A DNA stretch of 64,000 bases from Methanofollis tationis. GTDB lineage: Archaea; Halobacteriota; Methanomicrobia; Methanomicrobiales; Methanofollaceae. A model generated the notes under the pieces. That model had not been told where the DNA came from. It made no database searches and was given only the letters and a program-made list of their open reading frames with translations. The DNA lies in the NCBI RefSeq assembly GCF_013377755.1, contig NZ_JABXWR010000001.1, positions 1,189,104 to 1,253,103 on the forward strand. Direction: 5' to 3'. The translations under genes and the position numbers were made by a program. Of the stretch, positions 11,136 to 34,627 are shown piece by piece (positions within the stretch are counted from its first letter, which is position 1; every line of letters begins with the position of its first letter).

Positions 11136-12392
11136 GATAGTGTAACGAATTTTCTGTAAAAATAATTTGGCCCTGAATCCAACCTAGATTTGGACAAAGG
11201 AGAAACAGGGCCATGGATCCCTTAGCGTTAATCGAAGATTATCTTTCCGATAATGAGAATGGCATGAAGACCCTCATCACCTGGTTCCTCAACCAGGTGA
11301 TGCTGCTCGAAGCCCTCCACCAGGCGGGAGCCGAGCAGTATGAACGAACCGATGCGCGGAAGGCTCACCGAAACGGCTACAAGAAGCGCTCTCTAAAAAC
11401 CCGATATGGAGAAACGATCCTCCAGAAACCACAATTCCGAGAGTTCCCCTTCGAAACACAGGTATTTGGACGCTATTCCCGGGTTGAGAAGGCTCTTGAG
11501 AATGCTATCTTTGAATCCTACCTTCAGGGAGTCTCAACCCGCCGGATCCAGGAGATTGTTGCTCATTTTGGCATCGAACAACTCTCTCCTGCTTCAGTAT
11601 CCAGGATAGCAAAGGACCTCGATGAACAGGTCCATGCATTCCTTCAGAGGCCTATTGAACAGGAGATTCCCTATCTCTTTGTGGATGCTTCGTACTACAA
11701 AGTCAGAGAGGGACCACGCTACATCACCAAAGCTCTTCTGGTGATCGCCGGTGTTCGAATGGATGGCTACCGGGAAATCCTGGGAGCTAGAATCACTGAT
11801 TGTGAAAATGAGATGTTCTGGTCGGGATTGTTCGAAGACCTCAAAGAACGAGGATTGGTGGGTGTCAAGATGGTTGTCTCAGATGGTCATGCCGGGATCC
11901 AGAAGGCGGCGGAAGCCGCCTTCCTCGGCGCATCGTGGCAGATGTGCTCGGTCCATTGCACCCGGGCGGTTTTAAAGAATATTCCACGGAAACATCAGAA
12001 AGAAGTTGCTGAGTCCTTGAAGGAGGCATATGGGGACGAGGAAAGACTTCAGCAGCTTGCAGATGATCTGAACGAACGAGGATATCGGAAAGCGGCCAAT
12101 ACGATCGAGAGATTCATCCCGGGACTTATGAGTTACACGGCGTTCCCGAAAGAGCACGCAAAGCGGATCCGAACGACGAACATGATGGAAAGAGTCAACA
12201 AGGAACTGAAACGGAGAACCAAAGTTGTAGGGGCCTTTCCCAATGAAGAGTCACTCCTCAGGCTGGCAGGATCCATCCTGATGGACATCAATGAGGAGTG
12301 GGTGACCGGCAGAAGATATTTGACGATGGAGGGGGAATGATCAAACAAGGAGACAGGGCTCAGACGAATTACAGAAGATCTGAAACACTACC
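11136..12392 (+). mobile_element. IS256-family element, copy A
   Basis: 1257-bp element with 24-bp imperfect terminal inverted repeats: left GATAGTGTAACGAATTTTCT, right (reverse complement) GGTAGTGTTTCAGATCTTCT, both continuing GTAA. It is flanked by the perfect 8-bp duplication GAAGAAGG at 11128-11135 and 12393-12400, which fixes the boundaries and shows a direct transposition event. Confidence 0.95.
11213..12340 (+). CDS. IS256-family (mutator-type) transposase, copy A
   Basis: 375-aa transposase of the IS256/MULE group. Seen: N-terminal region with GAEQYERTDARKAHRNGYK, first catalytic aspartate in IPYLFVDASYYKVREG, second in VGVKMVVSDGHAGIQKA, the CxxH motif in WQMCSVHCTRAVL, and the catalytic glutamate in RTTNMMERVNKELKRR. 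All are intact. AAAGGAGAAA precedes ATG 11213. The protein is identical to copies B and C. Confidence 0.95.
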   Translation: MDPLALIEDYLSDNENGMKTLITWFLNQVMLLEALHQAGAEQYERTDARKAHRNGYKKRSLKTRYGETILQKPQFREFPFETQVFGRYSRVEKALENAIFESYLQGVSTRRIQEIVAHFGIEQLSPASVSRIAKDLDEQVHAFLQRPIEQEIPYLFVDASYYKVREGPRYITKALLVIAGVRMDGYREILGARITDCENEMFWSGLFEDLKERGLVGVKMVVSDGHAGIQKAAEAAFLGASWQMCSVHCTRAVLKNIPRKHQKEVAESLKEAYGDEERLQQLADDLNERGYRKAANTIERFIPGLMSYTAFPKEHAKRIRTTNMMERVNKELKRRTKVVGAFPNEESLLRLAGSILMDINEEWVTGRRYLTMEGE

Positions 12393-12873: not shown

Positions 12874-13044
12874 ATGTATACTGCAGCATTGAATAACTAC
12901 GAGGAGTTTTTACGATCTGTCAGTATGAGGTCCGAAATTAAATATATGGAAGCATCGATTTCTAAGTTTGGTAGTGCTAACAAAGATATAAGAAGTGTGT
13001 CGCTGGTAGCCCCACATCGAATCGAGCTGACGGATGAAACTTGA
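12874..13044 (+). pseudogene. Possible C-terminal coding remnant (56 codons)
   Basis: An open frame beginning at ATG 12874 reads MYTAALNNYEEFLRSVSMRS and ends APHRIELTDET. The same frame is open upstream to a TGA near 12815, reading NADDHY just before the ATG. The ALNNYEEFL pattern resembles helical tails in restriction-type proteins, but no family can be named. It may be what remains of a gene at the left edge of the BREX island. Its end coincides with the first of two direct repeats. Confidence 0.3.
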
Positions 13045-13110
13045 TACCGACGGCGATCCCCCTCTGTTCGAGGAGGTATTCCCACATCGAATTGAGCTGA
13101 GGGACGAAAC
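13005..13110 (+). repeat. Pair of 36-nt direct repeats (CRISPR-like or coding duplication)
   Basis: Units at 13005-13040 and 13075-13110 share GGTA, then CCCACATCGAAT-GAGCTGA-GGA-GAAAC with three point differences over the last 30 nt. They are separated by 34 nt of unrelated sequence, with AT-rich sequence upstream. Repeat length, spacer length and the GAAAC 3' end fit a two-unit CRISPR remnant. Against this, both copies encode PHRIEL(T/R)DE, and two of the three differences are silent in that reading. No cas gene is in the window. Confidence 0.45.
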
Positions 13111-14533
13111 CCTCCATGCATCGTTTTCGCACGTTACCATACTCGAACAGACATTCATCGACAAACTGGTGCAAATCCTTTCAAAGCACTTTGCAAATGG
13201 ACTTCGGATTAACTCACCGATTGAGTTGGCGCGTTTTAGGTCTTTTGCTGCAGAAGATTGGGGCGAGGAAATCTTGCTGCCTGACGAGGAACTGAAAAGT
13301 TATATCGCGGGTTGCGGAACTACCTTCGATGGCAAAGTCTACGCCGTGTCGGCTCAGACAAAAGAACGAATCCGGGAGCTAGTGGAGGAATACTTCGCCG
13401 ACGGCGCACGAGCCATATTCTTTGCTGAGTTTTATGCCAAGAACGAGAACTGGCTGTTCGGGGCAAGCGTGGTCTCCGAAGATATACTTATTAGCATACT
13501 CCGTATGCTGTTCCCAAAACTGTCGTTCACGGAGACCTATTTCGGCTATACAGATGCTTCCGCCTTCGCCGTTCTTGAGAGTGAGATCCTCCGCGTGTGG
13601 GGCGACGATGCACTGCTGACCTATAAGCAACTCGCTGAACGGTTACAGTACATACCTCTTGACCGGATAAAATACGCCCTTGGTCAGAACGGCAACTTCA
13701 TCTGGAGTAGCGTAGAGATCTTCTCGCACGTCAGCCGAATCGACATCACCGACGAGGAACGGGAAGCAATCCGAGAAGCCGCCGCGCGAAAGTGCAACGC
13801 TTGCGGCTATGTTTCAATTACAGACTTGCCTTTCGGAGAAATCGAGGAGCGCAACTACGAACTTTCCATTACGGCGGTTCATAACGCTGTTTACCGCATC
13901 TGCCTGTCGGACAAGTTCGACAAGAAAGGCAAAATCGTCACGCGCAAAGGCGATGTTTTTGACGCGCTGAGCATCATGAGAGAGTACTGCCAAACTATCG
14001 ACAAATGTTCACTTGACGACTTGCTGAACTTCGAGAAGAAACTGACAGGCGAGGTTCGCCGTCGGATACCTATGGAGGCGGGCAACACCATTCTGGTTCG
14101 TATCGATAAAGACACCTATGTTTCAGACAGGCATGTTCACTTTAACGCTGATATGATCGATGAAGCTATCGAGTTGTTTGTTAAGGGAGACTATCTTCCG
14201 CTTAAATCATTCACGACCTTTGGGGCATTCCCCGACTGCGGGCAGGAGTGGAACTTGTTCTTGCTTGAAAGCTACTGTCGACGCTTCAGTCAGAGGTTTC
14301 GCTTCGATACCCCGACAGCCAACTCGCGGAATGCCGGAGCGGTCATCCGCAAAAGTTGCAGGATGAACTACACGGAGATTATGACCGATGCTGTAGCGAA
14401 TGCCGACATCCCATTAAAGAGCACCGTCGTCGGCAAGTTCCTGTACGAGAACGGGTACACGGGCAGAAGCACAACCGCCAAAGTTGGCGAAATCATAGAT
14501 AAGGCGAAAGTCATACGAGAAAGAAGGAATTGA
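13034..14533 (+). CDS. Unknown protein ahead of brxP in BREX-4 island
   Basis: 499-codon frame, family not recognised. The first 25 or so codons lie in the direct-repeat pair, so the native N-terminus has probably been lost or replaced; homologous-looking sequence seems to begin around TILEQTFIDKLVQIL, with GTG 13169 as the next start codon. The body is mainly helical with alternating short winged-helix-like segments (ANGLRINSPIELARFRSF, LLTYKQLAERLQYIPLDRIK, IPLKSTVVGKFLYENGY), one Cys pair (KCNACGY), and no nuclease, ATPase or methylase motif. Its stop overlaps the brxP start region, so it belongs to the BREX transcription unit. A sensing or DNA-binding role is speculation. Confidence 0.6.
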   Translation: MKLDTDGDPPLFEEVFPHRIELRDETLHASFSHVTILEQTFIDKLVQILSKHFANGLRINSPIELARFRSFAAEDWGEEILLPDEELKSYIAGCGTTFDGKVYAVSAQTKERIRELVEEYFADGARAIFFAEFYAKNENWLFGASVVSEDILISILRMLFPKLSFTETYFGYTDASAFAVLESEILRVWGDDALLTYKQLAERLQYIPLDRIKYALGQNGNFIWSSVEIFSHVSRIDITDEEREAIREAAARKCNACGYVSITDLPFGEIEERNYELSITAVHNAVYRICLSDKFDKKGKIVTRKGDVFDALSIMREYCQTIDKCSLDDLLNFEKKLTGEVRRRIPMEAGNTILVRIDKDTYVSDRHVHFNADMIDEAIELFVKGDYLPLKSFTTFGAFPDCGQEWNLFLLESYCRRFSQRFRFDTPTANSRNAGAVIRKSCRMNYTEIMTDAVANADIPLKSTVVGKFLYENGYTGRSTTAKVGEIIDKAKVIRERRN

Positions 14534-14813
14534 AGATGTATTCGTATACTTACGACAAGAAAACGGGCGGAATACTCCTTAATTCCTCGCCGACGGGGTT
14601 CTCAAAAGAGCCCCGCCCTGTTTACGCACCCGAATTGGACGTGCTGGGCTTTGATAAGTATTGGAAGTATGACAAGCAGACCGACTATCCATATCTGTGG
14701 GCGGAGTCTAATTACTACTGGTATCGCGGTAACCTTGTGGCTATGTTAAAGGGCGGTAATCCCTATACTGCACCTGAGATACGCCTTGCTTATGCGTGCA
14801 ACGAGTACAGAGA

Positions 14814-16070
14814 GGTAGTGTTTCAGATCTTCTGTAATTCGTCTGAGCCCTGTCTCCTTGTTTGATCATTCCCCCTCCATCGTCAAATATCTTCTGCCGG
14901 TCACCCACTCCTCATTGATGTCCATCAGGATGGATCCTGCCAGCCTGAGGAGTGACTCTTCATTGGGAAAGGCCCCTACAACTTTGGTTCTCCGTTTCAG
15001 TTCCTTGTTGACTCTTTCCATCATGTTCGTCGTTCGGATCCGCTTTGCGTGCTCTTTCGGGAACGCCGTGTAACTCATAAGTCCCGGGATGAATCTCTCG
15101 ATCGTATTGGCCGCTTTCCGATATCCTCGTTCGTTCAGATCATCTGCAAGCTGCTGAAGTCTTTCCTCGTCCCCATATGCCTCCTTCAAGGACTCAGCAA
15201 CTTCTTTCTGATGTTTCCGTGGAATATTCTTTAAAACCGCCCGGGTGCAATGGACCGAGCACATCTGCCACGATGCGCCGAGGAAGGCGGCTTCCGCCGC
15301 CTTCTGGATCCCGGCATGACCATCTGAGACAACCATCTTGACACCCACCAATCCTCGTTCTTTGAGGTCTTCGAACAATCCCGACCAGAACATCTCATTT
15401 TCACAATCAGTGATTCTAGCTCCCAGGATTTCCCGGTAGCCATCCATTCGAACACCGGCGATCACCAGAAGAGCTTTGGTGATGTAGCGTGGTCCCTCTC
15501 TGACTTTGTAGTACGAAGCATCCACAAAGAGATAGGGAATCTCCTGTTCAATAGGCCTCTGAAGGAATGCATGGACCTGTTCATCGAGGTCCTTTGCTAT
15601 CCTGGATACTGAAGCAGGAGAGAGTTGTTCGATGCCAAAATGAGCAACAATCTCCTGGATCCGGCGGGTTGAGACTCCCTGAAGGTAGGATTCAAAGATA
15701 GCATTCTCAAGAGCCTTCTCAACCCGGGAATAGCGTCCAAATACCTGTGTTTCGAAGGGGAACTCTCGGAATTGTGGTTTCTGGAGGATCGTTTCTCCAT
15801 ATCGGGTTTTTAGAGAGCGCTTCTTGTAGCCGTTTCGGTGAGCCTTCCGCGCATCGGTTCGTTCATACTGCTCGGCTCCCGCCTGGTGGAGGGCTTCGAG
15901 CAGCATCACCTGGTTGAGGAACCAGGTGATGAGGGTCTTCATGCCATTCTCATTATCGGAAAGATAATCTTCGATTAACGCTAAGGGATCCATGGCCCTG
16001 TTTCTCCTTTGTCCAAATCTAGGTTGGATTCAGGGCCAAATTATTTTTACAGAAAATTCGTTACACTATC
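14814..16070 (-). mobile_element. IS256-family element, copy B, inserted in brxP
   Basis: 1257 bp, same ends as copy A in reverse orientation, with the perfect 8-bp duplication TACAGAGA at 14806-14813 and 16071-16078. By eye the sequence matches copy A throughout, so the insertion is recent. It sits antisense to brxP. Confidence 0.95.
14866..15993 (-). CDS. IS256-family transposase, copy B
   Basis: 375-aa intact transposase identical in protein to copies A and C, with the same catalytic aspartates and glutamate. Encoded opposite to the BREX operon it interrupts. An active enzyme in several copies makes both new insertion and excision plausible. Confidence 0.95.
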   Translation of the reverse strand: MDPLALIEDYLSDNENGMKTLITWFLNQVMLLEALHQAGAEQYERTDARKAHRNGYKKRSLKTRYGETILQKPQFREFPFETQVFGRYSRVEKALENAIFESYLQGVSTRRIQEIVAHFGIEQLSPASVSRIAKDLDEQVHAFLQRPIEQEIPYLFVDASYYKVREGPRYITKALLVIAGVRMDGYREILGARITDCENEMFWSGLFEDLKERGLVGVKMVVSDGHAGIQKAAEAAFLGASWQMCSVHCTRAVLKNIPRKHQKEVAESLKEAYGDEERLQQLADDLNERGYRKAANTIERFIPGLMSYTAFPKEHAKRIRTTNMMERVNKELKRRTKVVGAFPNEESLLRLAGSILMDINEEWVTGRRYLTMEGE

Positions 16071-18240
16071 TACAGAGAAACTCCAAACAGCAAGGCAACC
16101 CAGAAGATACTCTGCGAATCACCGGATAAAAATCCGTCCTTTATTGATAAAAAAGGCAATGTGTTCAGCATTGTCAACCCTGAGCCGAACGGTAACTCCC
16201 TGCGTCCTGTTGATGTTGCTGCGATGGTCGAAGCAAACCGTGAAATGCTTGAAATCATCGAGCAGACCACGGTCAAAAAAATCTTGGCCATATATACCAA
16301 ATACAAGAACAAACTCGACTGCTTCCACGTGGCGTTTTCGGGCGGAAAGGACAGTTGTGTCCTACTCGACCTTGTAAAGAAAGCCCTGCCCAAAGGCAGC
16401 TTCGTTGTGGTGTTTGGCGACACTGGCATGGAGTTTCCAGACACCTACGAGGTCATCAGGAAAACAGAAAAGCAGTGTGTTAAGGACGAAATACCGTTTT
16501 ACGTCGCCAAATCCCACCTTAACCCGAAAGAATCGTGGGAACTGTTCGGTCCCCCATCCCGCGCATTACGTTGGTGTTGCTCGGTGCATAAAAGCACCCC
16601 GCAAACGTTGAAACTGAGAGAAGTGACCGGCAAAGAAGATTTTATTGGTCTTGATTTTGTTGGAGTTCGGGCGCAGGAGAGCGTTGCTCGAAGTACATAC
16701 AAGTACGAAAACTATGGGGCAAAGCAAAAGGGTCAGTTTAGCCATAACTCAATACTTGAATGGACATCCGCGGAGGTATGGCTATATATATATGCAAATG
16801 ATTTGTTGATTAACGAGGCCTATAAAAAGGGTAACGGTCGTGCCGGATGTTTGTTTTGCCCTATGTCGGGTGGCACAAGTGACTACTTGCGGCGAGCAAG
16901 TTACCCGAAAGAGATCGACAGCTACATCAATTTGATTAAAAACACCTATGACGAGGACAAGCGAAAGAAAAGCAACACTGAATCGTATATCCTAAACGGC
17001 GGTTGGAACGCAAGAAAGAATGGTCGTGAGTTATCGAACAATACGTTCCGATGTATTGAAAAAACTACAAACGGGATTCTGAAAATAACCATTACAGCCC
17101 CTGATTCCGACTGGCTGGAATGGATAAAAACACTTGGAGATTTACACGGTGAAAACGGTGATTACTACGTCCAATTTGACGGCGAATGCATACGATTTTC
17201 TGTTAAGGCAACAAAGAACGGGTATATTGTAACGATACCCGAAGTTGTACTGAAAGACAGACCTGCATTTGGGAAGATATTCCGGCAAGTATTCCGAAAA
17301 GCATCGTATTGCAAAGGTTGTCGAGTTTGCGAAACGAACTGCCGAAATGGATGTATAAGTTTTGTCAATGGCAAAGTCAGAATAAACAACTGTATTCGGT
17401 GTCACGAATGCCATGCAATCGATAGCGGCTGTCTATTGTTTCATTCGTTACGCCATCCACAGGGAGGAGGAAAACCAATGAAAAGTCTAAATTCATTCGC
17501 CGACCACGCTCCGAAGCCGGAGTGGTTGCGATCATTCTTTGGACTGAAGGATGCGTTCTTTTCGGAACATACTCTGGGACCGATGATGTTCGATATGTTC
17601 AGGCGTTTCCTTCGGGATGCTTCCTTAAATGAGAAGAACCACTTCACGCCGTTTGCAGAGTTCATTTCACAGATCGGCTGGGAAACAGACACTGCACAAG
17701 GTTTGATTCTTATCAACCTTGTCGCCGAAAACCCACAGATGGAGTGGTATGTCATTAATCTTGATGTCGGCAGACCCTATGCACGTCAGGTCGTCGAAGA
17801 CATGCTGACAGCCGTTGATATCAAGCCTAAAGATGCTAAGTCAATCGCCAAATCCTATAAGCGTCTGGTCGAAACACCGCTCGGCACGAGCCTACACTGG
17901 GGATTTGTCACTGAAGACGGCGACCTCGTCCGCACAAAATGCTCGGTGGGCGATCCGCGTGTGGTCCTGTATGGCTTGTTCAAATTTGCGGAGAAGTGCA
18001 ACGACTACAAAGAGTTCACGCTCGCTACACTCCTAAACGACAGCATCGACCGCGACGGAATAAGCCCTACACGCATCTTCGGCCTTGACCGCGACGATAT
18101 GACGCCCATACTTTTAGGGCTGTCAGCAAAATACCCTGAGTTCATCACCGCGTCGTTCACGCATGACCTGGAGAAGATAACACTTGCGAAAGACAAGTCA
18201 TCCCAAGATGTACTGGACTTGTTTAAGGAGGAGGCAGCAA

Positions 18241-21200
18241 ATGGCTAATAGCAATAAATACCGGGAATATTTCGACATTGACGAAGAATATTTTCCTCAG
18301 GTCAATGACTCCGCCATCGCTGCTGCTAGTCCGGACTTCTGGACGCGTACCTACCCACACGACACGTTCATCGAAATGTTGAACAGTATGGAGCGTGTTT
18401 TGGCGCGACAGGAGAAGCGTTCCCTCTGGATTGAGGGTGCATACGGCACGGGCAAGTCCCAGTGTGCTTACACCCTGAAAAAGATTCTCGAAGTGCCGGA
18501 GGATGAACTCCGCGCATATTGGGACAGATATGAGCCGCTGAAAAAGAAAAGCGACCTGCTCGAAAAGTTCATCGGTCACAAACAAAAGGGCATCGTGACC
18601 GCTTATCGCTACGCCTCGGGTATGATCGACTCTCCCCGCGACTTGTTCTTGGCCGTTCAGGAAACCCTGAAGGCTTCGTTGGTCTCTGCGAACCTTTACG
18701 CCGGAGAGAATACACTCAAAGAGAGCGTCATCGCTTGGATTGAAGAACCCTCGCACAAACTGTTCTTTGACGCACTTTTGAAAAAACCGGAATGGGCAGC
18801 TCTGTTTAGTCAATCCTCCACAGACGAGGTGCTGGACGCCCTTCGCAAAGGCGGCGAGGTCAAGACGCTGATGGACAACATTTTCCGGCTTGCTGATAAA
18901 GAGGGTATAACCGCGCTGACCATTGATTCAGACAGACTTATCGCCTGGCTGATCGACATTATTGACCGCAACAATGTAAAAATCATCTTTATTTGGGACG
19001 AATTCTCCGATTATTTCAGGAACAACCGCGAGAGCCTTTCAGAATTCCAGAAACTCGCCGAATTAGTAAATTTGAAGCCGTTTTATTTCATCGTCGTTAC
19101 ACATGAGTCCGGGCATTTGTTCACGACCGCTGACACGACTTGGGCAAAAATACGCGACCGATTTATTACTGTTGATATTAAATTGCCGGACAACATCGCT
19201 TTCGAACTCATCGGACACGCTTTCAATGTGAAGCCCGTTGCTAAGACAGATTGGGATACATTGGTTGATGGCGACTTGGGAAGCCGAACAAATATCTCCC
19301 GTTCTAAAGTTATGGCTGTGGCGAATATTGATAATCCGCAAGTGATGAAGGACATTATGCCGCTCCACCCGATGGCGGCATTGCTCCTCAAAAACATAGC
19401 CTCCGCTTTCAAGTCCAATCAGAGAAGTATGTTTGACTTCATCAAGTCCTCAAACACGGATGATGTGAAGGCGTTCCAATGGTTCATTGAAAATACGGGT
19501 CCTTTTGACGACCATCCACTTCTTACGGTGGATCTGTTGTGGAACTTTTTTTACGAGAAAGGCCGGGATAACCTCACATCAGACATTCGCCTGATACTGG
19601 ATACCTTTCCGCAGCAGCAGAATTTGCGTGAGGATGAGAAAGCGGTTCTGAAAGCTATCCTCATTATGCAGGCGATTGACCAGCGGCTCCGCGGCGAGAT
19701 TGATCTGTTCAAAGCGACCGATCAGAACCTCAGCTATGCCTTTGAGGGCATACCTGACCTGGAGGGAACCAAATCCGCCAATCTTGCGAAAGGGCTTAGG
19801 GAAAAAGGCATCCTCGTTTCCAATCCGATAGGCGGCGGACGATATGTTTATGCGGCTGCCGTGCTTGCGGGAGACCAAGCCAAAATCGACGAACACAAGA
19901 AAAACGTACGACAAAACAGTACAACCTCGAAATTGGTGACCGAGGGTGGACTTTCTACCGTTTTATCACTTTCTCCCGCTCTTCGTCTGCGATTTGAGTC
20001 GGAGCCGGGTACAGGTAAAATCACCCCCGTGACTGCCGCAGATTTTACACGTAATATCAATATCCTCCGCGATAAAACCACGGGGTGGAATTTCCACGCC
20101 GTTATCGCCTTTGCCAAGGATGAGGCAGAGGCGGCTACCTTCCGAAAGACTCTTAGAGCAGCGGTCGCCGATAAGCAATACGAAAAGATCGTGTTCATCG
20201 ATGCGCTTTCCACGCCACTCGGCTCCGAAGCGTTTGAACAATACGTGGACTTTACTGCAATGGCGATGTACTACCAGGGAAGCCTCAACACCCCGTCGAG
20301 GGATAATTCAGATAAGGCAAAGCGCGTTTTAGACCCGGACTGGAGAAACCGTATCTACAACGGTCAGTTTATCGTATATACCCATGCCAATCAGGAAGGC
20401 GAGAAACTCGGAAACGGTCCAGGCGTGGCAAGCGTTCTTCAGACGATTGTTACGACAAAATTCCCGTATGCATTCGACTTTGCGAGGGGACTCACGGAAA
20501 GCCAGTTGAAGATAACTCCGGCTATGAAACAGTCGACAAAAGCAGGTATTACGCAAGTCGCCAGTGGTGTTGTTGGCGGCGTTGAAAAACATGTTTTGCC
20601 GACTGTATGGAAGATTGATAATTATTGGGAAAGCCCGACAACTTCTTCCTTACCGATCTCGAAAATTAAGGTTGAAGTCGACAAACACATTAAAAGCGCG
20701 TTTGATCGCGACGGGCAAATTTCAATCGGCGAAATCTATGACTTCCTTGAGGATACCTACGGTTTTGCTCCTTGCAATCTCTCGGCGTTCATTGCAGGCT
20801 TTTTATTGAAAGAGTACGGCAGCGAACCATATCGTTACAGCGATTCATCCGGCGGCCACGAGCAGATGACGCAGGACAAACTTGCAGAGATGTTGGGTAA
20901 CTACATCGGCAAATCCCCGAAACCAACCTACATCGTAAAAATGACTGCCGACGAAATGGCGTTTTACGAACTCACCGAAAAGGCGTGGGGTGTTCAGCCT
21001 AATTCGTGTTCATCTGCGGGCCAGGCAGCTATTGCGGTAACTGCCAAAATGCGCGGACTGAATTTGCCTGTATGGTGTCTTGAAGAAGTGGATACAGTCG
21101 GCATCTTCGATGTGGTTCAGAAGTACAGTGAACTTGTTCAAAAGGAAGGCAACGAGGCTCACAAAAAAGCAGTCGAGATCGGAAAGATTGCGTCTGCAAA

Positions 21201-22395
21201 ACCATCCCTCGCCGATAACTTGTTTGCATTGCTCACAGGTGAAAATTGCCAGGAAGGTATGCGCAAATATCTCCGTTCCTTTGAAGGGGGTAAGGTCCTA
21301 GAACTTGCCACGGCAATTGGTGCTGAGGACAATATACTCACCGATATTTCCCGCCTGTTCGGAGTGAAGCACTCGTGCCTGTGGGATAAACAGACCGGCG
21401 AGGACGAAATCCGTAAATTGCTGACCGAATATAGCGTAGTCAAAGAGAGCAACGCCATCCTGAACGTTTCGGCCCATTCCTTGACGGAAGCGTTCAAAGA
21501 GTGGCGCGAACGGTTGAAGTTCATCGGCATCTCATGCGATGCTTTACGGGCAAAGTACCCTGCTTTGGCAAAATCCCTCGACACGCTCTTGAAAATCTGC
21601 AAGCAAGAGGACATATTGCCCGAACAGTTAAAGGCATTCCATTCAGAACTTGTGGCGCACGGTGCGGAAATCAGGGAGTTGTTGAGCAACGACAGGCGCG
21701 TCTTTGCTGAGGTTTATGAGCCGTACCTTGAAGACCTGAGTGATGACGATATTGCCGATATTAAATGCAAGTTGCAAACAGGCTTGTTTGAATTGCCGAA
21801 AACCGACTGTAACGTCAAAGTGAAAGAGGCTGCCGAAGAATTCCGAAAGAACCAGTTGAAGTCGCAACTCTTCCGCTTGTGGAAAGACAAGACGGGAACG
21901 AAAAATCCGCTCGAATGGTCGAGCCGCTACAGGACGCCCATCCTATGCTGTGTCTCCGAGGCTGAGTATGAGAAGGCTAAAAAGGCATTTGAAACCCTTA
22001 ACCGCAATGGGGGAACAGATGCCGAAATAAAAGCTTCTCTCGCTTTCTTGGAATCCACTACGCTGTTTGATGTCCTTTCGGATGATGACAAGCGGAACAC
22101 AGCATTCAACCGGGATATCGTTGGCGAATACAGTGCGTTGCTTCCAGACCTCGATAAGGTAAGGGATACCCTAGATCATCTTTCTGTCGATACTTACGAT
22201 TGGCGTGATAATCCGAGCGTTAAGAGCAAGGTGAAGCGACTTGCCGAAGCCGAGTACAACGCGGGCGGCAGCGACAGGGTCCTCCTGAAAATCGATGAGA
22301 TGGACGATGCCCAGTTAAAGCAATATCTCAAACGGCTTGTCAAGGACAGCATTACGGTCGGCATTGAAATACTGGCGAATGAAAGCAGGAAATAG
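18241..22395 (+). CDS. brxC: BrxC-like large ATPase (BREX type 4)
   Basis: 1384-aa P-loop protein, the large ATPase of BREX systems (BrxC/PglY group). Walker A is WIEGAYGTGKSQCAYTLKK at about residues 60-78; a Walker B-like segment is NVKIIFIWDEFSDYFRNN near residue 250. Helical C-terminal two thirds carry no other recognised motif. ATG 18241 was chosen over the longer upstream frame because AAGGAGGAGG lies just ahead, and it overlaps the brxP stop (18246-18248) by 8 nt. Next to pglZ with a 1-nt gap. Lower GC than the flanking chromosome and many A/T-ending codons suggest transfer. Confidence 0.85.
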   Translation: MANSNKYREYFDIDEEYFPQVNDSAIAAASPDFWTRTYPHDTFIEMLNSMERVLARQEKRSLWIEGAYGTGKSQCAYTLKKILEVPEDELRAYWDRYEPLKKKSDLLEKFIGHKQKGIVTAYRYASGMIDSPRDLFLAVQETLKASLVSANLYAGENTLKESVIAWIEEPSHKLFFDALLKKPEWAALFSQSSTDEVLDALRKGGEVKTLMDNIFRLADKEGITALTIDSDRLIAWLIDIIDRNNVKIIFIWDEFSDYFRNNRESLSEFQKLAELVNLKPFYFIVVTHESGHLFTTADTTWAKIRDRFITVDIKLPDNIAFELIGHAFNVKPVAKTDWDTLVDGDLGSRTNISRSKVMAVANIDNPQVMKDIMPLHPMAALLLKNIASAFKSNQRSMFDFIKSSNTDDVKAFQWFIENTGPFDDHPLLTVDLLWNFFYEKGRDNLTSDIRLILDTFPQQQNLREDEKAVLKAILIMQAIDQRLRGEIDLFKATDQNLSYAFEGIPDLEGTKSANLAKGLREKGILVSNPIGGGRYVYAAAVLAGDQAKIDEHKKNVRQNSTTSKLVTEGGLSTVLSLSPALRLRFESEPGTGKITPVTAADFTRNINILRDKTTGWNFHAVIAFAKDEAEAATFRKTLRAAVADKQYEKIVFIDALSTPLGSEAFEQYVDFTAMAMYYQGSLNTPSRDNSDKAKRVLDPDWRNRIYNGQFIVYTHANQEGEKLGNGPGVASVLQTIVTTKFPYAFDFARGLTESQLKITPAMKQSTKAGITQVASGVVGGVEKHVLPTVWKIDNYWESPTTSSLPISKIKVEVDKHIKSAFDRDGQISIGEIYDFLEDTYGFAPCNLSAFIAGFLLKEYGSEPYRYSDSSGGHEQMTQDKLAEMLGNYIGKSPKPTYIVKMTADEMAFYELTEKAWGVQPNSCSSAGQAAIAVTAKMRGLNLPVWCLEEVDTVGIFDVVQKYSELVQKEGNEAHKKAVEIGKIASAKPSLADNLFALLTGENCQEGMRKYLRSFEGGKVLELATAIGAEDNILTDISRLFGVKHSCLWDKQTGEDEIRKLLTEYSVVKESNAILNVSAHSLTEAFKEWRERLKFIGISCDALRAKYPALAKSLDTLLKICKQEDILPEQLKAFHSELVAHGAEIRELLSNDRRVFAEVYEPYLEDLSDDDIADIKCKLQTGLFELPKTDCNVKVKEAAEEFRKNQLKSQLFRLWKDKTGTKNPLEWSSRYRTPILCCVSEAEYEKAKKAFETLNRNGGTDAEIKASLAFLESTTLFDVLSDDDKRNTAFNRDIVGEYSALLPDLDKVRDTLDHLSVDTYDWRDNPSVKSKVKRLAEAEYNAGGSDRVLLKIDEMDDAQLKQYLKRLVKDSITVGIEILANESRK

Positions 22396-22396
22396 A

Positions 22397-24637
22397 ATGC
22401 AAATCGATTCGGTAAAGAAATACCTGACATCTTCCGTTAAGACGCCATATTTCCTGTTTATCAGCGACGGTCAGTACAAGGTCGTCATTGACGAATTGTC
22501 GATGTTGGGTCTTGATATTGTACAGATGAGCAGTTTCTGCGGTAGCGATGATAAATTGCCGGATATCGACGGTCTGCTCACTTATATCGAAGCGGCTGAT
22601 GTAAACGCAAGAAGCAAGAAGTTTGTTGTGACGGGGCTTGGTGAATACCTCGCACTCCGCGGGCCTGATGAAGCTTCTCGTACTCTGTCGCGATTGAAAG
22701 ACCTGAATGTCGGCGGTGCAAAAGTTGTGTTGCTCCTGCGAGGGCTTGCCTCACAGATTGCCGCGTTACAGGCCGACCCTCGCTTTGATAGCCGTCGGTT
22801 CAACGTCGTTAATAATGCGGAGTGTGACTTATCAATTACCCTTGCCGCCCCATCTGTCGGATTGCCGGCTTTATCGGGTTTCAAAGCATTACTTGCGGAA
22901 CTTGAAGATGGTCGGTGCGGAAGTGTTGTCGTGAATACAGCAGTCAATCTCGAGAAGGCAATATTCACCGTACACCAAATCAGCAATGCGTATGATGGCA
23001 TTAAATTCTCCACAAGGGGTTTTGCTTTGGCGCGTTCCTGCGGGAGCGACGCTCGTTGGGCGGAGTTGCTGGCAGAACTCAACCAGAGCAACAGTTCACT
23101 CGACGAGGTGTTCGAGAAACATGGTCTTGGCAATAATCTGGAGTCCGATTTCTACGCTCGCATTGCAGGAAGCGATTACTGCAACTGGCTCTATTTTATC
23201 TGTTTGAAGAGTAAGGCTGACATATTGCAAAACGGATACCTTCAATTCGTTCTGGATAAGACGAATCGCTTTGAGGATTTCGTTTCAAACATTCTCAACG
23301 CAATTATCGAAATCCCGCATACCGACAAACGGTTTTCATCGTATTATCGGGAGCGTAAAGCCCTAGTTGAAAAGTTCCCTGAGTCGGATATCGCAGACTT
23401 CGTAGTGAACAATCGGCAAGTAGTGTCTGAAAGCATTTATAAGCTGACTGACGGCACAAGGGTCGAGCGCGAAGAAATTATCGCTTGGCTTTCACAAAAC
23501 GGCTTAATCCCGGGACTTGAGGGCATTTATCCCGCATTGGCGGCTTATCTTAAGAAATATGTTTTTAAATGTCCGCAAATGGCGGACTTGCTAACTGAGT
23601 ATTTCGAGGCGTACAAACGGCAAAAGATGTCTAACGAGCTTGAAAATGACTTTTTGGAAAAAGTCGATCAACTTGCCCTCGCACGACAATTCAACCGACT
23701 GCCTACGCGGAACGAAATTATAGACAGCGTGGATAAGAGTGACACTTTCCTGTATTGGCTCGATGCACTCGGCGTTGAATACTTAGGCTTAATTGAAGCT
23801 CTAGTTCAAAAACGTGGCCTATCGGTTCGGGTTCATATCGCCCGTGCGGAACTGCCGACAATAACATCTATCAACCGCGACTTTTTCAATGCGTGGCAAG
23901 GCCGTAAGGAAAAGAACGATGAACTTGATGATACTAAACACAGCGACGCGGGCGGTTATAACTTCACCAACAATGAGCTGCCTATCCACCTTGCTAAAGA
24001 GTTGGATATAATAGCGGCGATGATTGACAAAGCGGCTACGGAACTTGCGCTTAGGCATTGTACACGCTTCCTGATTGTAAGCGACCACGGCGCATCACGG
24101 CTTGCTGTTCTGCGGCGTAAAGAAGAAAAGTACGATACCGATACCATAGGCGAACATTCGGGGCGCTGCTGTGAGATTTTCAAGCCTTATGACCTTCCGT
24201 TTGCCGCAGAGGGGAACGGATATCTCGTGCTTGCCGATTACGGTCGCTTCAAGGGAGGTCGCGCTGCGAATGTGGAAGTTCACGGCGGGGCGTCATTAGA
24301 AGAGGTTGTCGTTCCTATCATTGAATTGTCGTTGAAAGACGGAAGCGTAACGGTCAAACTGGTCGATGAGGTCGTGACCGTAGATTATCGCACCGGCACG
24401 GAGATTAATCTGTTCTTTAACTCGCCGGTACAGGATGTTTCCGTTGTTTTAAATGGGAAGCCCTATTCGGCTTCGCAGATAGATGCAAATCACTACTCCA
24501 TAAAGCTGCCCGACACAAAACGGGCGGGCGAATATCCGGCGGACGTTTACGCAGGCGATAACCTGGTTGGCAAAGTTATGATTAAGGCGCAAGGCAAGAG
24601 CGGCAAAGTCAATGACGCTTTTGATGACTTGTTTTAG
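22397..24637 (+). CDS. pglZ: PglZ-domain protein (BREX core)
   Basis: 746-aa protein with the alkaline-phosphatase-superfamily PglZ domain, the one gene common to all BREX types. Seen: TPYFLFISDGQYKVVIDEL near the N-terminus, supplying the metal-binding aspartate region, and RFLIVSDHGASRLAVLRR near residue 575, the conserved SDHG metal-ligand motif. FKGGRAANVEVHGGASLEEVVVPIIEL follows (given in parts here: VEVHGGASLEEVVVPI), typical of PglZ C-terminal cores. ATG 22397 begins 1 nt after the brxC stop; the longer frame upstream overlaps brxC and is rejected. Exact biochemical role is unsettled in all BREX systems. Confidence 0.85.
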   Translation: MQIDSVKKYLTSSVKTPYFLFISDGQYKVVIDELSMLGLDIVQMSSFCGSDDKLPDIDGLLTYIEAADVNARSKKFVVTGLGEYLALRGPDEASRTLSRLKDLNVGGAKVVLLLRGLASQIAALQADPRFDSRRFNVVNNAECDLSITLAAPSVGLPALSGFKALLAELEDGRCGSVVVNTAVNLEKAIFTVHQISNAYDGIKFSTRGFALARSCGSDARWAELLAELNQSNSSLDEVFEKHGLGNNLESDFYARIAGSDYCNWLYFICLKSKADILQNGYLQFVLDKTNRFEDFVSNILNAIIEIPHTDKRFSSYYRERKALVEKFPESDIADFVVNNRQVVSESIYKLTDGTRVEREEIIAWLSQNGLIPGLEGIYPALAAYLKKYVFKCPQMADLLTEYFEAYKRQKMSNELENDFLEKVDQLALARQFNRLPTRNEIIDSVDKSDTFLYWLDALGVEYLGLIEALVQKRGLSVRVHIARAELPTITSINRDFFNAWQGRKEKNDELDDTKHSDAGGYNFTNNELPIHLAKELDIIAAMIDKAATELALRHCTRFLIVSDHGASRLAVLRRKEEKYDTDTIGEHSGRCCEIFKPYDLPFAAEGNGYLVLADYGRFKGGRAANVEVHGGASLEEVVVPIIELSLKDGSVTVKLVDEVVTVDYRTGTEINLFFNSPVQDVSVVLNGKPYSASQIDANHYSIKLPDTKRAGEYPADVYAGDNLVGKVMIKAQGKSGKVNDAFDDLF

Positions 24638-24649
24638 GAGGTGCTATTG

Positions 24650-26137
24650 ATGGTTGAGAAACTGAGAAATTGCTTTGACGAGATGGTCGTGTATAAGGAT
24701 CTTAAAAAAAGCAACTTCTTCTCCGCTCTGAGCCTGCCTTCTTTTATGCGTGACTGGCTCTTAAAGAAATTCGAGGACGAGAACGGCCACTTCGACTCCG
24801 ACGAGTTGGTTCGCTTTGTGCGGACTTACTTACCGCGCAAAGATGACTGGACTGCTATAAAGAATCAGGTGGTAATTGAACACGAGCGGGTGAAGTTCCT
24901 TGCCAAGGTGTCGGTTGATATCGACATCAAAACAGGGGAGGTGTCGTTTACTTTGCCCGATTTCGGGCTGACGAGTAAAGACACCATCATCGAGGACTCC
25001 GTTTGGCAAACCTGTAAGGATGACCTGGTGCGCAGCCGCGAGACTTGGGGAATGGTCGAAATCGGCTATCGTCCACCCGATGACTACGACATGGAGTTTT
25101 CAAAAAACAAGGCAAAGGGCGCAAACAGGGGCAAAATCAAGTTGACGAGTTTTAAGACCTTCTGCCCCTACACGATTGATATCGACTACTACAAGGACGC
25201 GCGACGTGAGTTTACCACGGCGGAGTGGATTGATGTCCTGCTTGGCGCAGTAGACTACAATGCAAGTGGTTATCTTGGCGATGAAGAAAAGAAACTCACG
25301 ATGCTTACCCGTTTGTTGCCATTCATTGAAAAAAGGCTGAACCTCATCGAACTTGCCCCGAAAGGAACCGGTAAGTCATATCTGTTCGGTCGCGTTAGCC
25401 GGTTCGGGTGGCTTTCGAGCGGTGGGGTTATGAGCCGCGCGAAAATGTTCTACGACCAGAATAAGCGTGCTGAGGGCTTGGTGTTCGGTAACGACTTCAT
25501 AACACTTGACGAAGTGCAAACCATTTCATTCACAAATGTGGATGAAATGCGCGCGGCTTTGAAGGGTTACCTTGAATCAGGGATTTTCACCGTCGGGAAC
25601 TATGAGGGGACTGCTGAGGCGGGCGTAATCCTCTGCGGCAACATCAAAAAAGAAACGATGGATGAGGACGGCTTCGGCAATATGTTTAAGGAACTGCCGT
25701 CTGTTTTCCACGAATCAGCTTTAATAGAGCGTTTCCATGGCTTTATTAAGGGTTGGAATATTCCACGAATGAACGACGACCTCAAGATTGCTGGGTGGGC
25801 GTTGAATTCCGAATACTTCTGCTCGATTATGCACGAACTGCGGGATGATATGAGTTATCGCGCCATCGTAGATGAACTCATCGAAGTTCCTGAAGCGGCA
25901 GATACCCGCGATACTGAGGCGGTCAAGCGCATTGCCACGGCATATTTAAAATTGCTGTTCCCGCATGTCCGTAGCGCAAACGACATAACTGCCCGCGAAT
26001 TCAAGCGTTATTGTCTCGACAGAGCGCGAAAGATGCGGAATACGATTAAATACCAATTGGGAAAGCTTGATGTTGAGTATCGCGGGAAAGACATTCCTGC
26101 GTTCAGCGTCAGACCTGACCCTGAAGAAGTGGAGTAA
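24650..26137 (+). CDS. brxL: BrxL-like AAA+ ATPase, short form
   Basis: 495-aa BREX ATPase. Walker A is APKGTGKSYLFGRVSRF, Walker B-like FGNDFITLDEVQTISF, followed by an arginine-bearing ESALIERFHGFIKGW typical of BrxL. In type 1 BREX, BrxL is nearer 680 residues and ends in a Lon-protease-like domain; this protein stops after the ATPase and a short helical tail, so the protease-like part is absent. TTAGGAGGTG lies 5-9 nt before ATG 24650, which decides the start. It is 12 nt downstream of pglZ and so in the same operon. Confidence 0.85.
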   Translation: MVEKLRNCFDEMVVYKDLKKSNFFSALSLPSFMRDWLLKKFEDENGHFDSDELVRFVRTYLPRKDDWTAIKNQVVIEHERVKFLAKVSVDIDIKTGEVSFTLPDFGLTSKDTIIEDSVWQTCKDDLVRSRETWGMVEIGYRPPDDYDMEFSKNKAKGANRGKIKLTSFKTFCPYTIDIDYYKDARREFTTAEWIDVLLGAVDYNASGYLGDEEKKLTMLTRLLPFIEKRLNLIELAPKGTGKSYLFGRVSRFGWLSSGGVMSRAKMFYDQNKRAEGLVFGNDFITLDEVQTISFTNVDEMRAALKGYLESGIFTVGNYEGTAEAGVILCGNIKKETMDEDGFGNMFKELPSVFHESALIERFHGFIKGWNIPRMNDDLKIAGWALNSEYFCSIMHELRDDMSYRAIVDELIEVPEAADTRDTEAVKRIATAYLKLLFPHVRSANDITAREFKRYCLDRARKMRNTIKYQLGKLDVEYRGKDIPAFSVRPDPEEVE

Positions 26138-26141
26138 TTGT

Positions 26142-26339
26142 GTGGAAAAGAAATGCTGTTATGTATGCGGAAAAAAAGCCCTGAGCAAAAACGAAATCGG
26201 GCTAACCAAAAAATTGCTCGATATGAACTCCAAGCGATTCTATTGCCTTGACTGCCTTGCTGAGTATTTGGAAGTAGACACTGAGTTCTTGCTCGCCAAG
26301 GTTGAGGAATTTAAGGAGCAAGGTTGCAAACAATTCTGA
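26142..26339 (+). CDS. 65-aa zinc-ribbon protein of the BREX island
   Basis: Small protein with a CYVCGKKALS knuckle near the N-terminus and FYCLDCLAEYLE about 30 residues later, giving a four-Cys zinc site, then an acidic helix (VEEFKEQGCKQF). GTG 26142 is 4 nt after the brxL stop, preceded by a GTGGAG stretch; no longer start is available without overlapping brxL. It lies 12 nt before the cysteine desulfurase. Not a classical BREX component as far as I know; it may act as an adaptor or sulfur-relay partner, but this is only positional inference. Confidence 0.7.
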   Translation: MEKKCCYVCGKKALSKNEIGLTKKLLDMNSKRFYCLDCLAEYLEVDTEFLLAKVEEFKEQGCKQF

Positions 26340-26351
26340 GGTGATGATACC

Positions 26352-27491
26352 GTGATTTACGCTGATAATGCCGCGACAACTCGGATTTCCGACCGAGCAT
26401 TTGAGCAGATGCTTCCGTTTTTACGCGAGCAATACGGAAACGCATCCAGCCAGTATTCGCTTGGAGTAAAAGCCAAACGCGCCGTAGAACATGCTCGGAA
26501 ACAAGTTGCGGCGGCCATCGGCGCAGAGCCGTCAGAAATCACATTTACCTCCGGGGGGTCGGAAGCGAACAGTTGGGTACTTCGCTGTGTTGCAGAAACT
26601 TACCACAACGAGTCGATTCACATCATAACCTCAACCATTGAACATCACTCTGTCCTGAACGCTTGCCGTGCGCTTGAACAGAGTGGCGTCGAGGTCACTT
26701 TCCTACCCGTCGATAATACGGGACGAGTTTTGGTTGAGGATGTTAAGGCGGCAATAAAGCATAACACAAAACTGGTATCGATTATGCTTGCCAATAACGA
26801 AATCGGAACAATTCAACCGATTACTCAGATTGGTGCCTTCCTTAAAGGACAAGATATCCTGTTCCATACCGATGCGGTGCAAGCCGTCGGTCACATTCCT
26901 GTCGATGTTGATGACCTACGAGTCGACTTCTTAACCGCTTCTGCCCATAAGTTCAACGGGGCTAAAGGAACGGGAATCCTGTACAAGCGATCAGGCTTAA
27001 ACTTGCCACCGTTGTTATTCGGTGGTGAACAAGAGCGAGGGCTTCGCGCCGGAACAGAAAATGTTGCTGGAATAGTGTCGGCGGGTTTCGCCATCGAGGA
27101 AAGCATTAGCGAAATGGCTGAGGAGGCAAAGCGATTAAGATCAATGGTTGAAGTTACAGTAGAAGGTATAAAAGAAAAGATACCCTCTGTTAGGGTCAAT
27201 GGAGATACCAAATCCTGTCTACCCGGCACCGTCAATCTTGGTTTTAATGGCATTTCAGGTGAATCGCTCATGCATCTACTCGATTTGAAAGGTATTTGCG
27301 TGTCTACGAGTTCAGCTTGTACCTCTGGCAAAGACGAGCCGTCACATGTGCTTCTTGCGTTAGGGCTATCCGAACAGCAGGCAAAGTCGGCCATCCGCAT
27401 CTCATATGGTAGATATAACACCGCAGATGAGGCGAAGGTCATTGTAAAGGCTGTTTGCGATGCCTACGCAAAAATAATAGATAACCTTTAG
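26352..27491 (+). CDS. Cysteine desulfurase (NifS/IscS/DndA type)
   Basis: 379-aa PLP enzyme that removes sulfur from L-cysteine and passes it on as persulfide. Seen: MIYADNAATTRIS N-terminus, TSTIEHHSVLNACRALE histidine, DAVQAVGHIPVDV aspartate, PLP-binding lysine in LTASAHKFNGAKG, and the catalytic cysteine in STSSACTSGKDEPSHVL. GTG 26352 starts 12 nt after the zinc-protein stop. Its codon use matches the BREX genes, and it ends the run of lower-GC genes. Location strongly suggests it feeds sulfur to BrxP, parallel to DndA with DndC. Confidence 0.92.
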   Translation: MIYADNAATTRISDRAFEQMLPFLREQYGNASSQYSLGVKAKRAVEHARKQVAAAIGAEPSEITFTSGGSEANSWVLRCVAETYHNESIHIITSTIEHHSVLNACRALEQSGVEVTFLPVDNTGRVLVEDVKAAIKHNTKLVSIMLANNEIGTIQPITQIGAFLKGQDILFHTDAVQAVGHIPVDVDDLRVDFLTASAHKFNGAKGTGILYKRSGLNLPPLLFGGEQERGLRAGTENVAGIVSAGFAIEESISEMAEEAKRLRSMVEVTVEGIKEKIPSVRVNGDTKSCLPGTVNLGFNGISGESLMHLLDLKGICVSTSSACTSGKDEPSHVLLALGLSEQQAKSAIRISYGRYNTADEAKVIVKAVCDAYAKIIDNL

Positions 27492-34504: not shown

Positions 34505-34627
34505 GGTAAATCTGCGCTCTGCTGGTTTTTTGAACCCATGATAGTTTGGTTTGAGAGAATTTAGCATTAGCGAAGGGGGCCGGGATGACCGCCGGCGCAC
34601 CCCGTGCCCGCGTCTAAAAACAGCCCT

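What the first reader, a model, noticed from the sequence alone, without database searches (positions are those of the whole stretch)
13034..27491. Type 4 BREX island with dedicated sulfur-supply gene in a methanogen
Seen: brxP (PAPS-reductase PP-loop plus DUF4007), brxC, pglZ and brxL in order, nearly gapless, followed by a zinc protein and a cysteine desulfurase with matching lower-GC coding. Known: type 4 is a rare BREX class defined by brxP with no PglX methylase. Inference: the desulfurase-PP-loop pairing mirrors DndA-DndC, so this BREX may mark host DNA with sulfur rather than a methyl group. It is the best candidate here for an under-described system.
Basis: partly seen in the sequence, partly recalled or inferred. 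Interest (0 to 1): 0.85.

Follow-up and report, generated by a model that had tools for sequence, protein, structure and literature searches.

The report
Type 4 BREX with unnamed DNA-binder
An archaeal genome carries a bacterial-type virus-defence operon thought to mark DNA with sulfur; its sulfur-transfer gene is broken by a jumping gene, and two companion genes, one of them without a name in the libraries searched, turn out to be near-constant parts of this branch of the system.

Summary
The type 4 BREX operon is real (window 13034-27491), with three corrections. (1) The start given belongs to a separate 499-aa gene, 'ORF0'. (2) brxP is split by an IS256-family element (8-bp target duplication; 28 full copies in the genome). 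(3) The sulfur reading is already in print: phosphorothioation by brxPCZL, and the cysteine desulfurase plus small zinc protein (desulfurase in 255 of 457 taxa). The new part is the architecture. ORF0, whose window copy has no hit in Pfam, NCBIfam, PADLOC or PHROGs, lies directly upstream of brxP in 77 of 77 relatives with room. The zinc protein follows brxL in 73 of 74 such loci, with or without the desulfurase, and ends in an invariant fifth cysteine. ORF0-bearing loci form one BrxP clade with long BrxC; sampled type 4 loci outside it lack ORF0 (0 of 10), the zinc protein (0 of 8) and the desulfurase (0 of 6 with room). ORF0 is predicted to be a winged-helix array; long versions add integrase-type and SeqA-like modules. 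Best reading: a phosphorothioating BREX subtype in which ORF0 reads DNA and the desulfurase, perhaps through the zinc protein, supplies sulfur. This copy is probably inactive for modification.

The parts
13034..14533 (+). ORF0: 499-aa protein, predicted array of winged-helix domains; unnamed near-constant component of this BREX-4 subtype
   Evidence: No Pfam, PADLOC, NCBIfam or PHROGs hit for the window copy; upstream of brxP in 77 of 77 genome-contig loci with room; AlphaFold2 mean pLDDT 92
14536..14813 (+). brxP, 5' piece, ending in the first copy of the target duplication
   Evidence: PADLOC BrxP 4.4e-33, model positions 1-87; ATG by comparison with homologues
14814..16070 (-). IS256-family insertion element inside brxP (transposase 14866-15993)
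   Evidence: NCBIfam transpos_IS256 1.9e-106; TACAGAGA at 14806-14813 and 16071-16078; 28 full copies in the genome, 4 of them (this one included) with the top, identical score
16071..18248 (+). brxP, 3' piece: PP-loop SGGKDS, CC...CxxC, eight-cysteine ferredoxin-like region, C-terminal domain; longest open frame from GTG 16161
   Evidence: PADLOC BrxP 1.2e-227, model positions 85-777; PF01507 3.6e-30; motifs conserved in A1
18238..22395 (+). brxC, 1385 aa (long form)
   Evidence: PADLOC BrxC 2302 bits; weaker SspC matches
22397..24637 (+). pglZ
   Evidence: NCBIfam BREX_PglZ_4 1.3e-175
24641..26137 (+). brxL
   Evidence: PF13337 1.6e-111, PF20442 2.2e-31
26142..26339 (+). small zinc-ribbon-like protein (about 65 aa) with an invariant fifth Cys near the C-terminus
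   Evidence: Alignments A5, A6; found in 73 of 74 ORF0-type loci with brxL of 400 aa or more, the one miss being cut by its contig end (L126)
26352..27491 (+). cysteine desulfurase, DndA/SspA/NifS-like
   Evidence: PF00266 2.1e-86; PADLOC DndA 468 bits, SspA 463 bits; NifS 462 bits, below its NCBIfam cut-off
11136..12391 (+). second, identical IS256-family copy upstream of the operon (context only)
   Evidence: genome coordinates converted; transposase 11213-12340

Best explanation
This is a horizontally acquired operon of a distinct branch of type 4 BREX: ORF0-brxP-brxC-pglZ-brxL-znP-desulfurase. Shown: gene content and order, conservation, clade, IS insertion. Inferred: (1) the desulfurase takes sulfur from cysteine, and BrxP (PP-loop ATP pyrophosphatase with an APS-reductase-like CC...CxxC pattern and a ferredoxin-like region) places it on the DNA backbone; (2) the zinc protein's C-terminal cysteine may hand sulfur from the desulfurase to BrxP; (3) ORF0, a winged-helix array with interchangeable N-terminal DNA-binding-type modules, tells the BrxC/BrxP complex where, or in what modification state, to act; (4) PglZ and BrxL act on unmodified invaders. 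In this genome the IS insertion has split brxP, recently by the identity of the copies, so modification is probably off unless a protein lacking the N-terminus works.
For: BREX-4 identity. PT chemistry of the type in print. ORF0: 77 of 77 loci with room; 40 gaps of 1-11 bases, 23 overlaps, 14 gaps of 15-193; 5 of 5 IMG/VR loci. One clade, SH-aLRT 100, branch 0.82. Zinc protein 73 of 74 against 0 of 8 loci; 27 of 27 against 0 of 7 genomes, all chosen for their BREX locus. Desulfurase 47 of 57 against 0 of 6 with room; Fisher p 1e-4, not corrected for shared ancestry. ORF0 structure: winged-helix matches; long ORF0s carry an integrase SAM-like domain (L102: PF02899, 6.7e-7, above cut-off; Xer and integron integrase chains Z 8.4 and 8.3) and a SeqA-like fold (Z 9.8, rmsd 2.5, 98 aligned, target 118 residues). 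N-terminal extensions differ between loci with similar cores. Intact relative G290 at 91-93% nucleotide identity; dN/dS 0.08-0.25.
Against: No modification was measured, and I could not see which subtype was used in the published phosphorothioate work (Yuan et al. not held). ORF0's role rests on predicted folds: its core matches many winged-helix proteins at middling Z (best 7.2 at rmsd 11.7), including RNA- and protein-binding ones; its pI is 5.3, not basic. SeqA is not among the 50 Foldseek rows shown for the long model, a SeqA-like profile found no SeqA by sequence, and the integrase-type profile found no solved chain at E<=0.01. The window's ORF0 has none of the extra modules. PMC12839542 already proposes another DNA-scanning unit, DUF4007, which ORF0-less systems would use too. 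ORF0 is not related by sequence to the BrxP C-terminal domain (hhalign probability 2%). The desulfurase is missing in 10 of 57 loci with room. The fifth cysteine may be structural.
Confidence: 0.65

Rival explanations
1. Ordinary type 4 BREX: ORF0 and the zinc protein are accessory genes (regulator, scaffold or anti-anti-defence) that are not needed for modification or its specificity; target recognition lies in the DUF4007 part of BrxP.
For: Other type 4 loci do without both (0 of 10 with ORF0; 0 of 8 with the zinc protein), and the published name is brxPCZL. PMC12839542 proposes DUF4007 as the scanning unit (passages) and likens the zinc protein to HTH regulators; weak Pfam matches of the zinc family include a siroheme decarboxylase HTH domain.
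Against: Near-complete conservation in operon order (77 of 77; 73 of 74) across archaea and several bacterial phyla (record titles) is unusual for dispensable accessories; both are mostly single-copy and tied to this operon.
Confidence: 0.3
2. ORF0 is the sensor or effector of infection (for example reading a phage product or replication intermediate) and not the specificity factor for modification.
For: ORF0 is the most divergent of the five genes compared: mean pairwise identity 26% against 35-66%, with different N-termini, as arms-race sensors are; winged-helix, SeqA-like and Xer-type modules could sense replication forks or hemi-modified DNA.
Against: No nuclease, NTPase or other effector domain above cut-off in the 18 long ORF0s scanned; position next to brxP rather than pglZ.
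Confidence: 0.25
3. The desulfurase serves Fe-S cluster assembly of BrxP only; any sulfur on DNA comes through housekeeping desulfurases or free sulfide.
For: BrxP has many conserved cysteines; this genome has other desulfurase homologues (49% and 38% identity); PMC12839542 says that housekeeping homologues substitute; some loci lack the gene.
Against: It follows the ORF0/zinc-protein branch rather than being scattered over all type 4 loci; PADLOC scores it best as DndA/SspA.
Confidence: 0.3
4. In this strain the locus is a decaying remnant with no present function (compatible with the best explanation for the family).
For: brxP is split by an IS256 element with an intact 8-bp duplication and identical copies elsewhere; a same-genus relative has it intact.
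Against: The other genes are open and full length; dN/dS is low in the genes compared, but that mostly reflects time before the insertion; a 695-aa BrxP piece remains open.
Confidence: 0.6

Closest known systems
Type 4 BREX (brxPCZL) as described in PMC12839542 (section 34 read) and in passages of PMC11931770
   Same: BrxP with PAPS-reductase and ferredoxin-like regions, BrxC, PglZ, BrxL, no methylase; a desulfurase and small zinc protein in part of the loci
   Different: ORF0 is not among the components in the text I read (figures and supplements not seen); the zinc protein proves nearly constant in this branch, and desulfurase presence follows a clade; BrxC is about 250 aa longer than in the ORF0-less branch
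SspABCD phosphorothioation system
   Same: Desulfurase (SspA-like), PP-loop protein (SspD-like, 47 bits) and BrxC/SspC-type ATPase; PMC12839542 section 34 draws the same parallels
   Different: Carries PglZ and BrxL; the BrxP model scores 756 bits against 47 for SspD; no SspB or SspE hit among the 8 operon proteins scanned
Dnd (DndABCDE)
   Same: Desulfurase close to DndA, PP-loop region related to DndC (35 bits)
   Different: No DndD or DndE hit among the 8 operon proteins scanned; PMC12839542 notes that BrxP lacks the DndC cysteine dyad
ORF0-less type 4 BREX (L036, L162-L165, L167 = Methanosphaera plasmid, L182)
   Same: brxP-brxC-pglZ-brxL in the same order
   Different: BrxC 1133-1189 aa where unbroken, no ORF0, no zinc protein, no adjacent desulfurase where there is room

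Membership tests
BREX type 4 | BrxP with PAPS-reductase PP-loop domain | tested here: met
   Both pieces match PADLOC BrxP, model positions 1-87 and 85-777; PF01507 3.6e-30; gene split by IS256
BREX type 4 | BrxC, PglZ and BrxL in one operon with BrxP | tested here: met
BREX type 4 | No PglX-type methylase in the operon | tested here: met
   No methylase hit among the operon proteins of 13034-27491; a D12 methylase lies outside, at 33581-34600
BREX type 4 | DUF4007 (BrxA-like) domain, fused or separate | tested here: inconclusive
   PF13182 not matched (the control did not ring); PADLOC PDLC02511 'BrxP' 2.8e-7 over residues 449-685 of the C-terminal fragment
BREX type 4 | DNA phosphorothioation | not testable with these tools
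   needs LC-MS or PT-seq; published for the type
Ssp | SspD as best match of the PP-loop protein | tested here: not met
   BrxP 755.9 bits against SspD 47
Dnd | DndC as best match of the PP-loop protein; DndD and DndE beside it | tested here: not met
   DndC 34.6 bits against BrxP 755.9; no DndD/DndE hit among the 8 operon proteins
Tyrosine-recombinase core-binding (SAM-like) domain, in long ORF0s | Pfam match above cut-off | tested here: met
   1 of 18 long ORF0s: L102, PF02899 29.9 bits, cut-off 22.3; L112 and L063 match PF13102 just below its cut-off
SeqA | Sequence or fold match of the ORF0 module | tested here: inconclusive
   Fold Z 9.8, rmsd 2.5, 98 aligned; not among Foldseek's 50 rows shown; no sequence match among solved chains or in Pfam for L102

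The most novel reading that the evidence does not exclude
ORF0 is the guide of a phosphorothioating BREX: a modular DNA reader whose winged-helix core docks on BrxP/BrxC while exchangeable Xer-type and SeqA-like modules choose the site or recognise hemi-modified DNA at the replication fork. The 65-aa zinc protein is a dedicated sulfur relay: its C-terminal cysteine carries persulfide from the desulfurase (dedicated or housekeeping) to BrxP. Type 4 BREX then consists of at least two mechanistically different subtypes.
Probability: 0.25. Interest if true: 0.75.

Novelty: new variant of a known kind. Interest (0 to 1): 0.5.

Why it matters
The only proposal I saw for target recognition in type 4 BREX is the DUF4007 unit (PMC12839542 passages). 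A conserved, modular putative DNA-binder encoded directly before the sulfur-transfer gene is a second concrete candidate, and the zinc protein a candidate sulfur carrier; both can be tested by single-gene deletions plus LC-MS or PT-seq. It also offers an alternative to the published explanation for the patchy desulfurase: it follows one clade. The natural brxP disruption in an otherwise intact operon suggests that restriction without modification is not lethal here (inference).

Tried and rejected
Tried without result: DUF4007 search of the own genome (control silent); PDB sequence searches with ORF0 (only dynein light chains at E 0.2-0.5), the zinc protein, the SeqA-like module and the integrase-type module; ORF0 in plasmids (none); Pfam/NCBIfam for the zinc family (only weak, scattered matches). 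The VIA rows shown contain no BrxA, SspB or FokI chain; that excludes nothing.

Considered and rejected: ORF0 as a diverged relative of the BrxP C-terminal (DUF4007-like) domain by sequence (probability 2%); ORF0 as the N-terminus of brxP (separate gene in the 77 loci); a desulfurase scattered over all type 4 loci; a frameshift or rearrangement in brxP beside the IS: the odd linker matches that of L053 and L054. A 'specificity swap' signal in ORF0 was not clear: ORF0 identity tracks that of the other genes (Spearman 0.73-0.81), although some N-terminal extensions are unrelated between close loci.

Mistakes and weak spots: one search timed out. In one search the BrxP_C comparison used a wrong frame and is void, and its BrxP_N value included a non-homologous linker; both were redone. 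One search failed and was redone. The Fisher value 3e-5 counted 7 ORF0-less loci; L040 has only 896 bases after brxL, so redid it with 6 (1e-4). In one search locus L087 was not counted, because my ORF picker missed its brxP; it has an ORF0 just upstream. BrxC lengths: 75 of 80 ORF0-type loci with pglZ give 1370-1444 aa, five are shorter (920-1244), at least four of them because BrxC is broken into two ORFs. The zinc-protein profile was built from 12 members, 11 of them in the counted loci; the 74 loci include near-duplicates (L055/L059, L100/L101, L104/L185, L106/L186). The fifth cysteine was counted in 71 of 71 members processed; the other two (L038, L039) show it by eye. The tree is a quick LG+G4 tree of part of the 98 BrxP sequences plus the window's (57 rows); its program warns of long branches for L040 and L168; L062 appears as ORF0-less only because its contig starts 154 bases before brxP. 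The 89 sequences also hold near-duplicates. Some ORF0-less loci are cut by contig ends (L041, L166, L183, L190). In one search I treated the rows down to E 1.9e-161 as BrxP and left the weaker ones aside. Group names for searches are inferred from record titles of L066, L054 and L045.
Full report
WHAT IS THERE. The window holds, on the + strand, seven genes in one operon-like run: ORF0 (13034-14533), brxP (from about 14536), brxC (18238-22395), pglZ (22397-24637), brxL (24641-26137), a small zinc-ribbon-like gene (about 26142-26339) and a cysteine desulfurase (26352-27491). Pfam, PADLOC and NCBIfam agree on a type 4 BREX. GC per kilobase over 13-28 kb is 46-51%, against 57-73% over 30-61 kb.

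brxP IS INTERRUPTED. The 5' piece matches PADLOC BrxP positions 1-87 and the 3' piece positions 85-777. Between them lies an IS256-family element in opposite orientation, bordered by the 8-bp repeat TACAGAGA at 14806-14813 and 16071-16078. The genome has 28 full and 4 partial matches of this element; four (this one included) share the top, identical score, one of them at window 11136-12391 just upstream of the operon. The sequence on both sides of the element matches the linker type of two intact homologues, L053 and L054, so the gene was probably whole before the insertion. A same-genus genome (G290, L035) carries the same operon with an intact brxP at 91-93% nucleotide identity. dN/dS against it is 0.08-0.25 for the genes compared, which mostly reports selection before the insertion. 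ORF0 was found in 1 of 11 other same-genus genomes. The BrxP of G290 has its best full-length matches outside the group in bacteria (Synergistaceae 86%, Spirochaetota 84%, Desulfofustis 83% identity; genomes very near the window's may be left out there): the operon looks horizontally acquired.

WHAT IS ALREADY KNOWN. PMC11931770 (passages seen) names brxPCZL (BREX type 4) as one of three gene families known to make phosphorothioates and cites Yuan et al. 2024; that paper itself is not held. PMC12839542 (sections 34 and 35 read; [quoted passage not shown] What I read of it names no gene like ORF0; its figures and supplements were not seen. I ran searches with BREX, brxP, phosphorothioate, type 4 names, cysteine desulfurase, winged helix and methanogen; of the papers listed I opened passages of PMC12707154, PMC11437467 and, cited elsewhere, PMC10853773, and none of these passages describes such a gene. 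The remaining listed papers were not opened.

ORF0 IS A NEAR-CONSTANT PART OF ONE BRANCH OF TYPE 4 BREX. In 77 of 77 loci with at least 900 bases upstream of brxP an ORF0 homologue precedes it: 40 gaps of 1-11 bases, 23 overlaps, 14 gaps of 15-193 bases. Two loci had no room and one (L087) was missed by my ORF caller but has it. All 5 IMG/VR contigs found with ORF0 have brxP next to it. In 42 genomes, all chosen because they carry it, ORF0 is mostly single-copy; 5 show a second or split match. Of the extra copies followed up, one belongs to a rearranged second BREX locus (L154), one stands without brx genes (L155) and one lies on a short contig (L153). The window copy has no match in Pfam, PADLOC, NCBIfam or PHROGs, and 73 family members give only isolated weak matches in PADLOC and NCBIfam.

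TWO SUBTYPES. BrxP searches of genomes drawn evenly from four groups (392 genomes of the own phylum; 393 of the order of a Tannerella MAG; 391 of the class of Lachnotalea; 247 of the phylum of a Spirochaetota MAG) gave both ORF0-bearing and ORF0-less loci. Ten loci without ORF0 despite room upstream (L036, L040, L041, L164, L165, L166, L167, L182, L183, L190; L167 comes from the plasmid search) give 0 of 10. In a BrxP tree of 57 rows all ORF0-bearing loci fall in one clade (SH-aLRT 100, branch 0.82); the one exception inside it, L062, starts 154 bases before brxP. BrxC is 1370-1444 aa in 75 of 80 ORF0-type loci with pglZ, the others being shorter, at least four because broken into pieces, against 1133-1189 aa in six ORF0-less loci (and 1535 in L040). 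The desulfurase follows brxL in 47 of 57 ORF0-type loci with room and in 0 of 6 loci of the other branch with room (L036, L163, L164, L165, L167, L182; L040 and L162 have too little room); Fisher p = 1e-4, not corrected for ancestry. The early branch L038/L039 has ORF0 and the zinc protein but no desulfurase found next to brxL. So desulfurase presence follows the clade, with absences inside it.

THE ZINC PROTEIN. A profile of the small protein finds it directly after brxL in 73 of 74 ORF0-type loci with brxL of 400 aa or more, 57 with and 16 without the desulfurase found; the one miss, L126, ends inside brxL. It is found in 0 of 8 ORF0-less-branch loci. In whole genomes chosen for their BREX locus it occurs in 27 of 27 ORF0-type and 0 of 7 of the other branch; two genomes have extra matches, of which one lies in a rearranged type 4 locus (L203), one in a fused ORF on a short contig (L204) and one outside BREX (L205). 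Beyond the four zinc-type cysteines it has a fifth, invariant in the 51-row alignment (G-C-x-x-F, three or four residues before the end in most). I propose that this is a sulfur-carrying tail; this is inference by analogy with small sulfur carriers (recalled, not tested).

WHAT ORF0 LOOKS LIKE. AlphaFold2 with 73 sequences gives mean pLDDT 92 and a run of winged-helix-like units. Foldseek and VIA-align match UFL1, SelB C-terminal domains, LOTUS and Z-alpha domains, at values that allow no more than 'tandem winged helix'. The best-conserved stretch is residues 401-425, and the C-terminal third as a whole is more conserved than most of the rest. The family is the most divergent of five operon genes compared over 64 loci (mean pairwise identity 26% against 35% PglZ, 39% BrxC, 52% BrxP, 66% BrxL), and lengths run from 456 to 1418 aa in 80 sequences of 440 aa or more. 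The extra length is N-terminal and made of repeated modules: an integrase-type SAM-like domain in 38 or 40 of 89 sequences (69 or 71 copies, by the profile used), and another domain in 23 of 89 (25 copies). The first is supported by Pfam PF02899 above its cut-off in L102 and by Xer and integron-integrase core-binding domains (Z 8.4 and 8.3), although Z values of this size are common for helical bundles. The second matches the DNA-binding domain of SeqA, bound to hemimethylated DNA in that entry, at Z 9.8 over 98 residues, the top VIA match for that model, but SeqA is not among the 50 Foldseek rows shown and has no support by sequence. Extensions are unrelated between some loci whose ORF0 cores are 60-72% identical, for example L049 with L065 and L061. 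I read ORF0 as a modular DNA reader; whether it sets the modified site, reads modification state or senses infection is open.

MECHANISM AND STATUS HERE. Most likely the desulfurase, perhaps through the zinc protein, feeds BrxP. Conserved in BrxP are the PP-loop SGGKDS, a CC...CxxC pattern like that of APS reductases (motif recalled; the second C of CC is not invariant in A1), and eight cysteines in a ferredoxin-like region. BrxC and ORF0 would place BrxP on DNA; PglZ and BrxL would act on invaders. In this strain the split brxP makes modification unlikely, while the remaining genes stay open. The genome keeps other desulfurase homologues (5 matches in all, the next best 49% and 38% identical), so the operon's copy is dedicated but not the only one.

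LIMITS.

Noticed in passing
window 11136-12391, 14814-16070, 60877-62132: Three copies of one IS256-family element in the window; 28 full and 4 partial matches in the genome, a recent expansion.
   Followed up: yes
window 2-1159: Serpin (PF00079, 1.7e-120) in an archaeal genome, cut by the window's start.
   Followed up: no
window 7079-8173: IS605-type TnpB with Cas12f1-like domain.
   Followed up: no
window 33581-34600: D12-class adenine DNA methyltransferase (PF02086, 7e-64), outside the BREX operon.
   Followed up: no
window 30001-32724: 907-aa protein without a Pfam hit at 1e-5, in a 64-73% GC stretch beyond the low-GC BREX island.
   Followed up: no
window 12461-12760 and L035 6486-6977: Related short ORFs (...NNSGHPTAKVK...) upstream of the operon in both genomes; DNA similarity runs from window 12393 into ORF0, so part of the left flank is shared.
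   Followed up: partly
window 13010-13110: Near-repeat of about 30 bases (CCCACATCGAAT.GAGCTGA.GGA.GAAAC) around the start of ORF0 and about 70 bases on.
   Followed up: no
   Followed up: partly
L168 (Treponema saccharophilum plasmid) 11689-23546: Ssp-like operon with BrxP-like PP-loop protein, separate DUF4007 protein, BrxC-like ATPase, desulfurase-type enzyme, helicase, ATP-binding and phospholipase D genes.
   Followed up: no
   Followed up: partly
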